Below, piece by piece: positions 2,838 through 57,384 of a stretch of 64,000 nt of DNA. Every line of letters begins with the position of its first letter. The first letter of the stretch is position 1. This DNA is from Fusobacterium perfoetens. Lineage in GTDB: Bacteria; Fusobacteriota; Fusobacteriia; Fusobacteriales; Fusobacteriaceae. The notes beneath the pieces are model-generated. The model was not told the origin of the DNA. It was given only the letters and a program-made list of their open reading frames with translations, and did not search any database. Made by a program: the position numbers and the translations under genes. The stretch spans positions 1 through 64,000 of the forward strand of contig NZ_JADYUD010000002.1 of the NCBI RefSeq assembly GCF_021531595.1. Direction: 5' to 3'.

Positions 2838-2866
2838 TACAAAGTTTTCCTCCTCTAAACTCTGTA
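2838..2866 (-). promoter_or_regulatory. SD-like sequence in a hairpin loop, autotransporter leader
   Basis: On the minus strand TACAGAGTT and AACTTTGTA are imperfectly complementary and enclose AGAGGAGGA, a perfect ribosome-binding sequence about 60 nt upstream of the real start at 2782. A TTG follows and opens an 8-codon frame. It could be a leader-peptide site or a ribosome standby site, but this is inference only. Confidence 0.25.
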
Positions 2867-2940
2867 TAATTACTTTTAATTTATTAAACGAGGAAAAATC
2901 ACATAATTCGTGATAATATTTTATTAATAATTAAAAAAAA

Positions 2941-2982
2941 GTAATAAAAAAAACAGCTTATTTTATCTTTTTTAAGCTGTTT
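2941..2982 (-). terminator. Terminator-like hairpin in the autotransporter leader
   Basis: AAACAGCTTA (2951-2960) and TAAGCTGTTT (2973-2982) form a 10-bp perfect stem with a 12-nt loop. Read on the minus strand, the stem is followed directly by a run of eight T. No minus-strand gene ends here. The hairpin sits between the promoter at 3056-3028 and the adhesin start at 2782, so it would act as an attenuator or as the end of a small leader RNA. Confidence 0.6.
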
Positions 2983-3027
2983 AAATAGTTAAAATTTATT
3001 ATACACTTATCCCCATACCTTTTCTTA

Positions 3028-3056
3028 AGTATAGTCCTGATATTTTTAATTGTCAA
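3028..3056 (-). promoter_or_regulatory. Sigma70-type promoter for the autotransporter leader
   Basis: The minus strand carries TTGACA (3056-3051), a 17-nt spacer and TATACT (3033-3028). Transcription should start near 3021, about 240 nt before the adhesin start codon and about 40 nt before the terminator-like hairpin. Confidence 0.65.
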
Positions 3057-50601: not shown

Positions 50602-51795
50602 TTATCTAATTTTAAATCTTACAGATCCCCCAACACCTATAGATGAAGTTTTAACATCATCTGTAGAGACAGAATATTTAGCATTTAATTTAATATTTTC
50701 AGCAGGAGAAAAAGCTATTCCTAAGGCAACTCCCTGACTGTTTTCAAAATGTCCCACTCCAGCTCCTATACCTATTTCACCAGGTCTGACATCTTGAAAA
50801 TCAATAGCTGTCATAGCAGCCATTAATGACATTCCTCTGTTTACTTTATTATCAAGGTTAGAAACTCTTTCATCAAGGTCTTCTAGTTTTGCTCTGTTAT
50901 TCATTATTTCAGCTTCTTGAGCAGAAATTCTTTCTTCATGATCTGTAAGTGTTTGTGTGTGTACAGATGTTTGACTTTGAAGACTAGCTATATTTTTTAT
51001 ATTTTTTTCATTTTCTGTAATTTTCTTGCTGTTACTTGCAATAGCATCAGAATTATCAGAGATTTTTTTATTATTAGAAATATTTTTTTCACGAATTTCA
51101 TTAATAGCAGTAGAATTTTTAGTAATTTTATTACTATTTTCTTCAATGCTTTTAGTATTATTAGAAATACTTACAGTATTTGAAGATATTTTATTATTGA
51201 TAACACTTTCAGATTTTTGCCTGTCATCAATTTCTTTTTTTATATTTTCAGAATTTGTAGAAATAAATTTAGAGTTTTTTTCAATATTATTTTCATTTTC
51301 TTTTATGGCTTTAATGTCGTTAGAAATAAGATTAATTTTTTTTGTATTTTCTTGAATAGTGTTATTATTCTTTTGGATATTTTGAGAATTTGTAGAAATA
51401 TTTGAAGTATTTGAAATAATATTTTTTTGATTGCTTTCAATTTTTATATTAATATTTTCTAATTTAGAATTAATATTATTTATATTTTCAGTAGCAGTTT
51501 TTACATTTTTTTCATGTTCTGTTACTTTATTTTCAAGCTCTTGAGCTTTTGAATTTATATCAGTAAGAAATTCAGTATGTTTATCAATAAGATCAGAATG
51601 ACTGTTTACAACATTTTGAGTATTTGTAAGATCATTGGATAATAGTTTAGATGATGGAAAAAATATCCATTTACTTGGTTTATGTTGAGTAACTTTTGAA
51701 GATGGTCCAAGATTTTCTAATTCAGTACCTATTGATAATGTAGTTTCAGTAATAAAAATAAAGCTTAGTAATAAAAGTGAAAATTTCTTTTTCAT
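50602..51795 (-). CDS. Trimeric autotransporter adhesin (YadA-like)
   Basis: 397 aa, type Vc secreted surface protein. Signal peptide 1 to about 22. Residues 55-310 are a long coiled-coil stalk made of Asn/Ile/Ser/Lys-rich repeats (I..N...I..N...I) without a globular head, so binding may be by the stalk or by the short 22-54 tip. The C-terminal roughly 80 residues are the YadA anchor: LDNKVNRGMSLMAAMTAIDF, RPGEIGIGAGVGHF, GVALGIAFSP and a terminal Arg after an aromatic-rich strand (SVRFKIR). Its leader has unusual hairpins (51828-51966). Confidence 0.92.
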   Translation of the reverse strand: MKKKFSLLLLSFIFITETTLSIGTELENLGPSSKVTQHKPSKWIFFPSSKLLSNDLTNTQNVVNSHSDLIDKHTEFLTDINSKAQELENKVTEHEKNVKTATENINNINSKLENINIKIESNQKNIISNTSNISTNSQNIQKNNNTIQENTKKINLISNDIKAIKENENNIEKNSKFISTNSENIKKEIDDRQKSESVINNKISSNTVSISNNTKSIEENSNKITKNSTAINEIREKNISNNKKISDNSDAIASNSKKITENEKNIKNIASLQSQTSVHTQTLTDHEERISAQEAEIMNNRAKLEDLDERVSNLDNKVNRGMSLMAAMTAIDFQDVRPGEIGIGAGVGHFENSQGVALGIAFSPAENIKLNAKYSVSTDDVKTSSIGVGGSVRFKIR

Positions 51796-51827
51796 ATATT
51801 CCTCCTAAAAAAATTGTAAGTAAAAAA

Positions 51828-51846
51828 ATCAGATAAGTTATCTGAT
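51828..51846 (-). terminator. Terminator-like palindrome in the adhesin leader
   Basis: ATCAGATAA-G-TTATCTGAT is a perfect 9+1+9 dyad. Read on the minus strand it is followed at once by seven T, like an intrinsic terminator, yet it lies 33 nt upstream of the adhesin start and downstream of its promoter. Confidence 0.5.
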
Positions 51847-51932
51847 AAAATAAACTATGTAAGATTATGTAAGTAGAAAATATCAAAATATTTGGTAAAT
51901 TGTATAGAGTGTTTAAAAATGTTTTTTGACAG

Positions 51933-51966
51933 GTTTATTTTATTAAAAATTTTTAATAAAATAAAC
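51933..51966 (-). repeat. 34-bp perfect palindrome in the adhesin leader
   Basis: GTTTATTTTATTAAAAA (51933-51949) and TTTTTAATAAAATAAAC (51950-51966) are exact reverse complements. It falls about 25 nt after the predicted transcription start, so it would form a long AU hairpin at the mRNA 5' end or a protein-binding site. Confidence 0.6.
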
Positions 51967-51997
51967 ACACCAAAAAATATATTTTTCAAACAAGCTA

Positions 51998-52026
51998 AGT
52001 ATATCAATGTTTTTTGAAAGAGTCAA
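51998..52026 (-). promoter_or_regulatory. Promoter of the trimeric adhesin gene
   Basis: The minus strand carries TTGACT (52026-52021), a 17-nt spacer and TATACT (52003-51998). It predicts a leader of roughly 195 nt. Confidence 0.6.
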
Positions 52027-52107
52027 ATAAAAATTTAACTTAGTTAAAAAATATTAAAATCGTGGTTTTTTATGATCATTTTTTACTTTTTTCAAACAAA
52101 AAAATAG

Positions 52108-52154
52108 AAAGTCAAAAAATAAAACTTCAAATCTGAAAATTATTTTTTGACTTT
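52108..52154 (-). terminator. Terminator of the thi operon
   Basis: AAAGTCAAAAAATA (52108-52121) and TATTTTTTGACTTT (52141-52154), 14-bp perfect stem, then TTTTTTT on the minus strand. Confidence 0.7.
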
Positions 52155-55570: not shown

Positions 55571-55614
55571 TTTGACTAGAGTATGAAAGTTTATGTATAC
55601 TAAAAATAGAATAG

Positions 55615-55782
55615 AAGTTTTTACGGTTCATGAAAATGATTAATAGGGAAGATGAGTGTAATTCTCACACGGTCCCGCCACTGTAAGAATGATGAAAGCA
55701 GCATATTACCACTAAAGATTTTTCTTTGGGAAGGGCTGTAAGTAAGATGAATTTAAGTCAGGAGACCTGCCGTATAAAACCT
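55615..55782 (+). ncRNA. Cobalamin riboswitch aptamer
   Basis: P1 pairs GTTTTTACGG (55616-55625) with CCGTATAAAAC (55770-55780). The core shows GGGAA, CACACGGTCCCGCCACTGTAA, and the B12 box AGTCAGGAGACCTGCC (55756-55771). It lies upstream of cobQ and so should lower expression of the cobalamin operon when adenosylcobalamin is plentiful. Confidence 0.93.
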
Positions 55783-55794
55783 TTTACAACCTGC

Positions 55795-55902: not shown

Positions 55903-57384
55903 ATGAAAAAAAATAAAAATATAATGATACTTGGAACATCTTCAGGAGCTGGAAAAAGTATTACAGCAGCAGGACTTTGCAGAGTTTTTTATAAAAATGG
56001 CTGGAAGGTAACTCCTTTTAAAGCACAGAATATGGCTCTTAATTCATATGTTACAAAAGATGGATTGGAAATAGGGCGTTCTCAGGGAGTTCAGGCAGCT
56101 GCATGTAAAATTGAGCCTGAAGGATATATGAATCCTCTTCTGCTTAAACCTTGTGGAAATAATCAGATTCAGATAATTTTAAATGGAAAGCCTGTGGGAA
56201 ATATGAGTGGATATGATTTTTCAAAAGAAAAACCAAAGTATAAAGAGCATATTTTAAAAGCTTATAAAAAAACAGAAAAATTTGATATCTGTGTTCTTGA
56301 AGGAGCAGGAAGTCCTGTTGAAATAAATATTAAAGAAAATGATTTAGTGAATATGGGAATGGCTGAAATGGCAGATGCTCCTGTTATTCTTGTAGCCGAT
56401 ATAGACAGAGGGGGAGTTTTTGCTTCTGTTGTAGGAACGATGGTTCTTCTTGAGCCTCATGAAAGAGAGAGAGTAAAAGGAATTATTATAAATAAATTCA
56501 GAGGAAGAAAAGACATGCTTCTGTCAGGAATAAAAAAACTTGAGGAGATAATAAAAGTTCCTGTTCTTGGCATAATTCCTTATTTTGATGTTGATATTGA
56601 AGATGAAGACAGGGTTACAGAAAGATTAAGAAAAGAAAAAGGAAAAGCAATAAATGTTGCTGTTATAAACTTAAATCATCTTTCAAATTTTACAGATATA
56701 GATCCTTTAAAAAAACAAGAAGATGTGGGAGTATCATATACAGACAATCCTTATGAACTTGATGATGCAGATATAATAATTATTCCTGGTTCTAAAAATA
56801 CTATAAGTGATATGGAATTTATAAGAGAAAAGGGAATAGATAAAAAAATTAAAGAGCTTCATCAAAAAGGAAAAATAATAATAGGGATTTGTGGAGGATT
56901 TCAAATTCTTGGAAAAGAACTGTGTGATAAAGATGGAGTTGAAGGAAATCCAAGAACAGTAAAGGGAGTAGGTCTTTTTAATATGACTACAGTTTTTTCA
57001 GAAGGAAAAACAACAACTCAATATAGAGGAAAACTGAAAAATACAGAAGGAATTTTACAAGGAATGGATGGTTGTGAAATTTTTGGATATGAAATTCATC
57101 AGGGAATAAGTTTTTCTGAAACAGAAAACTCTCTTACAGATGATAAATTTATAAAAGCTATTGTAAAAGAAAATATATTTGGGACATATATACATGGAAT
57201 TTTTGAAAATAATTGCATTACAGAAAGAATTCTTAATATAGTGAGAGAGAAAAAAGGAATGTCTTATAAATTTTTAAAAGAAAGTTATGAAGAATACAGA
57301 GAAAAACAATTTGATAAACTTGAAAAAATAATGAGAGAAAATATTGATATTGAAAAAATTTATGAGATTATATTTAAAAAATAA
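55903..57384 (+). CDS. cobQ: Cobyric acid synthase CobQ/CbiP
   Basis: Amidates four side chains of the corrin ring (adenosylcobyrinic diamide to cobyric acid) with glutamine and ATP. 493 aa: N-terminal P-loop-like GTSSGAGKS (11-19), KAQNMALNSYVT, VLEGAGSPVEIN, ILVADIDRGGVFAS; C-terminal class I glutaminase-like domain with IIGICGGFQILG (catalytic Cys) and GYEIHQG (His). First gene after the riboswitch. Confidence 0.96.
   Translation: MKKNKNIMILGTSSGAGKSITAAGLCRVFYKNGWKVTPFKAQNMALNSYVTKDGLEIGRSQGVQAAACKIEPEGYMNPLLLKPCGNNQIQIILNGKPVGNMSGYDFSKEKPKYKEHILKAYKKTEKFDICVLEGAGSPVEINIKENDLVNMGMAEMADAPVILVADIDRGGVFASVVGTMVLLEPHERERVKGIIINKFRGRKDMLLSGIKKLEEIIKVPVLGIIPYFDVDIEDEDRVTERLRKEKGKAINVAVINLNHLSNFTDIDPLKKQEDVGVSYTDNPYELDDADIIIIPGSKNTISDMEFIREKGIDKKIKELHQKGKIIIGICGGFQILGKELCDKDGVEGNPRTVKGVGLFNMTTVFSEGKTTTQYRGKLKNTEGILQGMDGCEIFGYEIHQGISFSETENSLTDDKFIKAIVKENIFGTYIHGIFENNCITERILNIVREKKGMSYKFLKESYEEYREKQFDKLEKIMRENIDIEKIYEIIFKK

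What the first reader, a model, noticed from the sequence alone, without database searches (positions are those of the whole stretch)
51796..52030. Second adhesin leader with stacked hairpins, including a terminator-like one
The trimeric autotransporter also has a consensus promoter (TTGACT-17-TATACT), then a 34-bp perfect palindrome near the mRNA 5' end, then a 9+1+9 palindrome followed by seven T, only 33 nt before the ATG. Two unrelated adhesin genes in one window share the unusual promoter-hairpin-T-run-start arrangement, which suggests a common mode of control, for example antitermination of surface proteins.
Basis: partly seen in the sequence, partly recalled or inferred. Interest (0 to 1): 0.55.

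Follow-up and report, generated by a model that had tools for sequence, protein, structure and literature searches.

The report
Flippable terminators before adhesin genes
The hairpins in front of this trimeric adhesin are real but look like an ordinary one-off leader, whereas the other adhesin in the window belongs to a set of ten surface-related loci whose short leader segments, most of them carrying a transcription stop signal, appear to be flipped by DNA inversion to turn the genes on and off.

Summary
The trimeric-adhesin leader is as described: promoter-like TTGACT-17-TATACT, a 34-bp perfect palindrome, and a 9+1+9 hairpin with a T-run 32 nt before the ATG. The palindrome is far beyond chance; the T-run hairpin is weak (-6.1 kcal/mol; 2.8% of shuffles). 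Testing whether the two adhesins share a control gave a split answer. The window's other adhesin and 7 of its 10 paralogues have the order promoter, 28-bp site, terminator, inverted 28-bp site, start. Under a strict pattern all 20 such sites in the genome form ten inverted pairs 115-117 bp apart; 60 other Fusobacteriaceae genomes stay near control level. The central six bases match within every pair but differ between loci. Two paralogues carry the terminator segment in opposite orientations, with the exchange inside those six bases. The other two pairs precede an MBOAT acyltransferase gene and a Wzz gene. These are most likely invertible, phase-variable leaders working like C. difficile cwpV; two solitary serine recombinases are candidate enzymes. 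The trimeric adhesin has no such site and does not belong. Antitermination by a NusG paralogue is unsupported (one NusG gene). Inversion in living cells is not shown.

The parts
50602..51795 (-). trimeric autotransporter adhesin gene, 397 aa
   Evidence: YadA_anchor PF03895; only match of that family in the genome at E <= 0.01
52021..52026 (-). predicted -35, TTGACT
   Evidence: consensus match
51998..52003 (-). predicted -10, TATACT, with TG before it
   Evidence: consensus match
51910..51992 (-). predicted 5'-terminal stem-loop of the trimeric adhesin mRNA
   Evidence: -21.6 kcal/mol, z -4.7
51933..51966 (.). 34-bp perfect palindrome, core of that stem-loop
51828..51846 (-). terminator-like hairpin, 8 bp, -6.1 kcal/mol
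51822..51827 (-). run of six T after the hairpin
52108..52154 (-). terminator of the upstream hydroxyethylthiazole kinase gene (ends 52182)
   Evidence: -15.8 kcal/mol; gene by PF02110
2..2782 (-). first adhesin, autotransporter-like gene, runs off the window
   Evidence: NF033175 N-terminal match below cut-off
3051..3056 (-). predicted -35, TTGACA, of the first adhesin
   Evidence: 11 of 12 with the -10
3028..3033 (-). predicted -10, TATACT, of the first adhesin
2978..3005 (-). promoter-side 28-bp recombination-like site, centre TTTTAA
2951..2982 (-). terminator hairpin inside the segment, sense direction (OFF)
   Evidence: -9.0 kcal/mol
2946..2950 (-). T-run of that terminator
2863..2890 (+). 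gene-side 28-bp site, inverted copy, centre TTTTAA

Best explanation
Two different things lie in front of the two adhesins. (1) The first adhesin (2-2782) and seven paralogous autotransporter-like genes elsewhere in the genome: a strong promoter lies outside a segment of 143-145 bp that ends in two inverted copies of a 28-bp site. The segment carries a mainly one-directional intrinsic terminator beside one site. In one orientation the transcript stops in the leader (OFF); after inversion the terminator faces the other way and the gene is read (ON). The same site pair lies before an MBOAT acyltransferase gene and before a Wzz gene. One site-specific recombinase probably switches the ten loci independently. 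Shown by sequence: site pairs, fixed spacing, matched central bases, terminator orientation, and one inversion fixed between two paralogues. Inferred: that inversion still happens in cells, that the terminators work, and which enzyme does it (best candidates: two solitary ~260-aa serine recombinases). (2) The trimeric adhesin of this finding is not part of this set. Its leader most likely works as a plain 5' leader: a long 5'-terminal stem-loop that shields the mRNA from decay, and a weak hairpin that at most lowers read-through a little. Part 2's mechanism is inference only.
For: Strict site pattern: 20 places in the own genome, all in ten inverted pairs, against 0-2 strand hits in each of 60 other family genomes (reversed-pattern control 0-3). 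Distance between site starts 115-117 bp in 10 of 10; central six bases equal in 10 of 10 pairs while arms agree in 155 of 220 positions (p = 2e-8; with one locus per sequence group, 36 of 36 against 96 of 132, p = 6e-5). Held-out sites score 22.4-30.2; best of 94 background leaders 6.8. Paralogues L041 and L042: inner segment aligns at 182 inverted against 73 forward, outer arms stay and inner arms are swapped. Promoters 11-12 of 12 outside the segment in 8 of 8 autotransporter-like loci; sense terminator in seven, antisense in L042 and the MBOAT locus. One NusG gene. For part 2: no site, weak hairpin, stable 5' stem-loop.
Against: No reads or second isolate: both orientations of one locus were not seen. 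The inversion is between two genes, not within one. Taken alone, the inverted repeat exceeds all 40 shuffles only in L037 and L042; in L034 and L035 it is not the top one. L042 keeps a -10.1 kcal/mol sense hairpin with a poor tail, TTTAGTTT, so ON may be incomplete. The Wzz segment has no terminator at the threshold on either strand, and neither MBOAT nor Wzz has a promoter match above 8 of 12. Five single-site matches exist at 3 mismatches. Autotransporter labels rest on an N-terminal model below its cut-off, weakest for L041 and L042 (E 0.001-0.004). The enzyme is not identified.
Confidence: 0.7

Rival explanations
1. All these leader hairpins, including that of the trimeric adhesin, are terminators overcome by antitermination (RfaH/LoaP-type factor, leader-binding protein or sRNA), one mode of control for surface proteins.
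For: Sense terminators lie between promoter and start in 7 of 11 autotransporter-like genes and a weak one in the trimeric adhesin. In F. nucleatum the sRNA FoxJ is proposed to act on intra-operonic terminators (PMC11005410, passages).
Against: Only one NusG-family gene; no Rfam family; does not explain inverted sites with matched centres or the inverted segment of L042; the trimeric leader shares no motif.
Confidence: 0.1
2. The inverted 28-bp sites are the two strands of a long RNA stem in the leader, conserved as RNA structure, and the L041/L042 difference is an old accidental inversion.
For: Inverted sites would pair in the transcript, and matched centres look like compensatory pairing.
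Against: Arms agree less (155 of 220) than the centre (60 of 60), whereas a stem needs all of it; exchange falls exactly inside the centre with inner arms swapped; spacing is fixed at 115-117 bp; a second locus (MBOAT) has the terminator on the other strand.
Confidence: 0.08
3. The trimeric adhesin hairpin is a real attenuator of its own kind, with the palindrome and repeats acting as an operator or competing structure.
For: Six T after a stem; its 47-nt surroundings fold better than all 200 shuffles. GTTTATTTTAT occurs three times in the window, all in this leader.
Against: Two G-C pairs and -6.1 kcal/mol. T-run hairpins of at most -5 kcal/mol occur in 28 of 50 co-directional gaps of the sample, this one included, 13 of them within 100 nt of the start. 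Pairing of the palindrome's second arm with the third repeat copy has probability 0 in the fold. No similar leader before 13 related trimeric adhesins.
Confidence: 0.25

Closest known systems
cwpV switch of Clostridioides difficile (PMC2784873; abstract and passages seen)
   Same: Promoter outside an invertible leader segment; imperfect inverted repeats (21 bp there); intrinsic terminator proposed in the OFF transcript at the junction of the promoter-side repeat; surface protein; recombinase gene not next to the switch.
   Different: There one 195-bp segment before a cell-wall protein with recombinase RecV (a tyrosine enzyme, recalled); here ten segments of 143-145 bp with one 28-bp site family, and a serine enzyme is the better guess. 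Inversion was shown there, not here.
Multi-locus promoter inversion in Bacteroides fragilis by the invertase Mpi (recalled; one search found only one listing with the name)
   Same: One enzyme acting in trans on many surface loci through one site family.
   Different: There promoters are inverted, here terminators.
Hin/Gin-type serine inversion sites (Hin: abstract of PMC3798978 in the listing; site layout recalled)
   Same: Near-palindromic site of two half-sites around a central dinucleotide that must match; here only the central dinucleotide (TT, AT, AA) of the six central bases varies between loci.
   Different: Half-sites of 13 bp against 12; no enhancer was looked for; the candidate enzymes also carry a PF07508 domain.

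Membership tests
cwpV-type invertible-terminator switch (autotransporter-like leaders) | promoter outside the invertible segment | tested here: met
   11-12 of 12 promoter matches, -10 ending 22-46 nt before the site, in 8 of 8 loci; predicted only
cwpV-type invertible-terminator switch (autotransporter-like leaders) | inverted repeats bounding the segment | tested here: met
   ten pairs
cwpV-type invertible-terminator switch (autotransporter-like leaders) | intrinsic terminator in one orientation only | tested here: met
   clear in L032-L037 (none antisense); L041/L042 keep a weaker hairpin with a poor tail on the other strand
cwpV-type invertible-terminator switch (autotransporter-like leaders) | DNA inversion in cells | not testable with these tools
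   only a fixed inversion between paralogues L041 and L042
cwpV-type invertible-terminator switch (autotransporter-like leaders) | a recombinase acting on the sites | tested here: inconclusive
   six tyrosine and three serine recombinase genes present, none linked to the sites
same switch, trimeric adhesin leader | 28-bp site pair | tested here: not met
   best score 6.2 against 22.4-30.2; absent from genome-wide matches
NusG-paralogue (RfaH/LoaP) antitermination | a second NusG-family gene | tested here: not met
   one match in the genome at E <= 0.01
known cis-regulatory RNA (Rfam 15) | match to a family | tested here: not met
   window: cobalamin riboswitch and a tRNA only; 18 loci up to E 5: six matches, all below gathering score, none a leader match of note
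Hin/Gin-type serine inversion system | near-palindromic sites with matching central dinucleotide | tested here: met
   TT, AT or AA, matched in 10 of 10 pairs, flanked by TT and AA in all; a 6-bp tyrosine core fits too
Hin/Gin-type serine inversion system | serine invertase and enhancer | tested here: inconclusive
   L163 and L165 have PF00239 and PF07508; enhancer not looked for

The most novel reading that the evidence does not exclude
A Fusobacteriaceae species has a genome-wide, apparently species-specific switchboard in which one solitary serine recombinase (or two paralogues) flips ten leader segments of fixed length, nine of them carrying a terminator, so that eight autotransporter-like adhesins, a surface-polysaccharide acyltransferase gene and a Wzz gene are turned on and off independently by moving transcription terminators rather than promoters.
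Probability: 0.5. Interest if true: 0.75.

Novelty: new variant of a known kind. Interest (0 to 1): 0.6.

Why it matters
Phase variation of Fusobacterium adhesins has been suggested; the CbpF paper states that no study had shown it for trimeric autotransporters of F. nucleatum (PMC6346709, passages). The sites found here give a direct test: orientation PCR or long reads at ten named places. If true, a clonal population carries many combinations of exposed adhesins and polysaccharide decoration, which bears on adhesion studies and on reading autotransporter expression data, and moving a terminator can be a genome-wide strategy and not only a single-locus one. For the trimeric adhesin itself the result is that its leader is a separate and probably ordinary case.

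Tried and rejected
Antitermination by a NusG paralogue: one NusG gene only. Known RNA families: none. The trimeric leader as a member of the switch family: no site. Its GTTTATTTTAT repeats as arms of a 77-bp invertible segment: an 11/11 inverted match, but score 12.0 against shuffles 12.4 +- 1.1, and the T-run hairpin lies outside it. An alternative fold pairing the palindrome's second arm with the third copy: probability 0. Relatives of the leader DNA in the genus: outside the window itself at most 45.5 bits over about 50 AT-rich bases. Leaders of other trimeric adhesins: of 25 relatives printed, 13 with a usable start were scored (L024 and those without start or upstream DNA were left out); 6 of 13 have a T-run hairpin within 300 nt, with no common position or sequence; L004 has a strong one (-19.7) after a promoter-like site, but it may be the upstream gene's terminator.

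Recombinases. Tyrosine: L060 and L062 have counterparts in 6 of 6 congeners (about 60% and 77-79% identity), L065 in 4 of 6 (43-48%); L061 and L063 have distant full-length relatives (44-47%, L137) and sit beside small reading frames that look phage-like by eye; L064 lies beside a phage tail gene. Serine: L163 and L165 are about 30% identical or less over their length to the 6 of 7 congener serine recombinases compared (L159 was not, because the script picked its neighbour). No 28-bp site next to L163 or L165. Named relatives: two scans of genome contigs, with the adhesin and with the L163/L165 alignment, returned none; relatives of L163 in phages and plasmids are all below 60% identity. Solved relatives are resolvases and phage serine integrases.

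Print. Ten searches of the paper library ran. The ones aimed at invertible or phase-variable elements in Fusobacterium or invertible terminators in general (39, 62, 69, 70, 87, 95) listed no such report for Fusobacterium; I saw listings, not the papers, and the library lacks most subscription journals.

Limits of the enrichment test: genes were called by a simple reading-frame script in 324 kb (254 genes, 94 with a gap of at least 150 nt); the common-criterion count of 9 of 11 was made by hand, which used 360 nt, includes L038 (probably the upstream gene's terminator), L042 (poor tail) and L037 (stem reaches -301).

Full report
What the finding describes. The trimeric adhesin gene (50602-51795, - strand, YadA anchor) has a leader with a promoter-like TTGACT-17-TATACT, a 34-bp perfect palindrome at 51933-51966, and a 9+1+9 hairpin at 51828-51846 followed by T's. 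The palindrome is the longest perfect inverted repeat in the window and none of 3000 shuffles reached its arm length. Folded as RNA it is the core of an 83-nt stem-loop that begins within a nucleotide or two of the predicted transcript start (-21.6 kcal/mol, z -4.7). The T-run hairpin is 8 bp with two G-C pairs, -6.1 kcal/mol; a comparable stem plus T-run arises in 2.8% of shuffles. In a 324-kb sample of the genome, T-run hairpins of at most -5 kcal/mol occur in 28 of 50 gaps of at least 150 nt behind a co-directional gene, this leader included, and in 5 of 44 divergent gaps. The upstream hydroxyethylthiazole kinase gene has its own strong terminator before the adhesin promoter (52108-52154, -15.8), so the weak hairpin is not needed for that gene.

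What the first adhesin turned out to be. The other adhesin is an autotransporter-like gene (2-2782, - strand, running off the window) with an NF033175-like N-terminus. The genome has 11 such matches, all below the model's cut-off and two of them weak; beta-domains were not tested. Their leaders show strong promoters followed by terminator-like hairpins in seven. In the paralogues L041 and L042 the promoter and the distal leader align in the same direction, but the segment with the terminator is reversed: the 101-nt inner segment scores 182 inverted and 73 forward.

The sites. A search for inverted repeats around these segments showed one shared 28-bp motif in 8 of 11 leaders (L032-L037, L041, L042). 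Leader by leader the repeat beats all 40 shuffles only in L037 and L042, and in L034 and L035 it is not the top repeat; it is the recurrence of one motif that counts. Scored with models built without the gene's own group, true sites stand far above the window background, whose 99.99th percentile is 4.2; in a symmetric model held-out sites score 22.4-30.2 while the best of 94 background leaders scores 6.8. A strict whole-genome pattern found 20 places, all forming ten inverted pairs with none left over; the other 60 family genomes showed 0-2 strand hits each, the reversed-pattern control 0-3. A looser pattern gave the same ten pairs plus five single places, with the six congeners at 33 strand hits against 33 for the control. 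The distance between site starts is 115, 116 or 117 bp in 10 of 10. The six central bases are equal within each pair (60 of 60) while the arms agree in 155 of 220 positions; many loci are related, and with one locus per group the figures are 36 of 36 and 96 of 132, p = 6e-5. Between loci the centre is TTTTAA, TTATAA or TTAAAA, so only the middle dinucleotide changes. In L041 and L042 the outer arms stay and the inner arms are swapped, which puts the exchange inside those six bases. Together this is what a site-specific recombinase leaves behind.

Orientation. Seven autotransporter-like leaders carry the terminator in the sense direction (-9.0 to -13.8 kcal/mol), beginning in or a few bases after the promoter-side site. 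L042 carries the strong T-run on the other strand (antisense -13.8); its sense side keeps a -10.1 hairpin with a poor tail, TTTAGTTT, and L041 has that same weaker hairpin antisense. The MBOAT segment has a terminator on the antisense strand only (-10.8), the Wzz segment none. Read literally, the assembly shows seven loci OFF, two ON and one undecided.

The other two loci. Pair C5:105635/105750 lies directly before an MBOAT acyltransferase gene (PF03062), in a co-directional run of genes whose translations look like polysaccharide transferases by eye (not searched by family). Pair C5:164560/164676 lies before a Wzz gene (PF02706) at a contig end. Neither has a promoter match above 8 of 12 upstream; the first lies between genes and may not need one.

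Is the trimeric adhesin part of it? No. Its best site score is 6.2; one other background place, counted twice because it lies between two divergent genes, scores 6.8. No inverted repeat at 40-260 nt stands out from shuffles, and the locus is absent from the genome-wide matches. The shared look of the two leaders is superficial. What its leader does is inferred: a 5'-terminal stem-loop can protect mRNA from decay (general knowledge, not tested), and the weak hairpin may reduce read-through a little or do nothing.

Which enzyme? Six tyrosine and three serine recombinase genes are present. L060, L062 and L065 have congener counterparts (6, 6 and 4 of 6 genomes); L061 and L063 sit beside small phage-like reading frames. 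The serine genes L163 and L165 are 52% identical to each other, carry a Resolvase plus a Recombinase domain, and have only distant relatives among 6 of the 7 congener serine recombinases, which fits the species-specific sites. The variable middle dinucleotide also suits a serine enzyme. This remains a guess until tested.

Alternatives. A long RNA stem could explain inverted, matched sites but not the swapped arms. No Rfam family matches.

Relation to known systems. The arrangement works like the cwpV switch of C. difficile, where the promoter lies outside the inverted segment and an intrinsic terminator is proposed in the OFF transcript at the promoter-side repeat (PMC2784873, abstract and passages). 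The enzyme class is probably different, and here one site family covers ten loci. The library searches listed no such report for Fusobacterium (listings only).

Noticed in passing
L161, L162 (congeners G003, G001); L159, L164 (G004, G006): A small serine recombinase gene (198-203 aa) lies between two oppositely oriented outer-membrane-protein-like genes in L161 and L162, and beside one such gene in L159 and L164; it looks like an invertible gene pair with its own enzyme (no Pfam match for the flanking genes of L161).
   Followed up: partly
L034-L036, downstream of the gene-side site: A third site-like stretch follows the gene-side site and would form a hairpin with a GGGGG loop, complementary to the CCCC loop of the terminator; possible long-range pairing.
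   Followed up: no
L037, about 20-130 nt before the start: A tandem duplication carrying a ribosome-binding-site-like sequence and a short upstream reading frame beginning ATGGGAAGA, like the start of the real gene.
   Followed up: no
L057, L058 (congeners G001, G003): Autotransporter-like leaders there also have a hairpin with a long T-run about 40 nt before the start, seen by eye but not reported by the script.
   Followed up: no
L032:2825-2875 and L035:757-807: The same 51-nt inverted repeat near two autotransporter-like loci, noticed through a chance Rfam match far below threshold.
   Followed up: no
window 51845-51855, 51933-51943, 51956-51966: GTTTATTTTAT occurs three times in the window, all in the trimeric adhesin leader; possible operator repeats, unexplained.
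   Followed up: partly
window 55607-55788, + strand: A cobalamin riboswitch upstream of the gene run starting at 55903.
   Followed up: no
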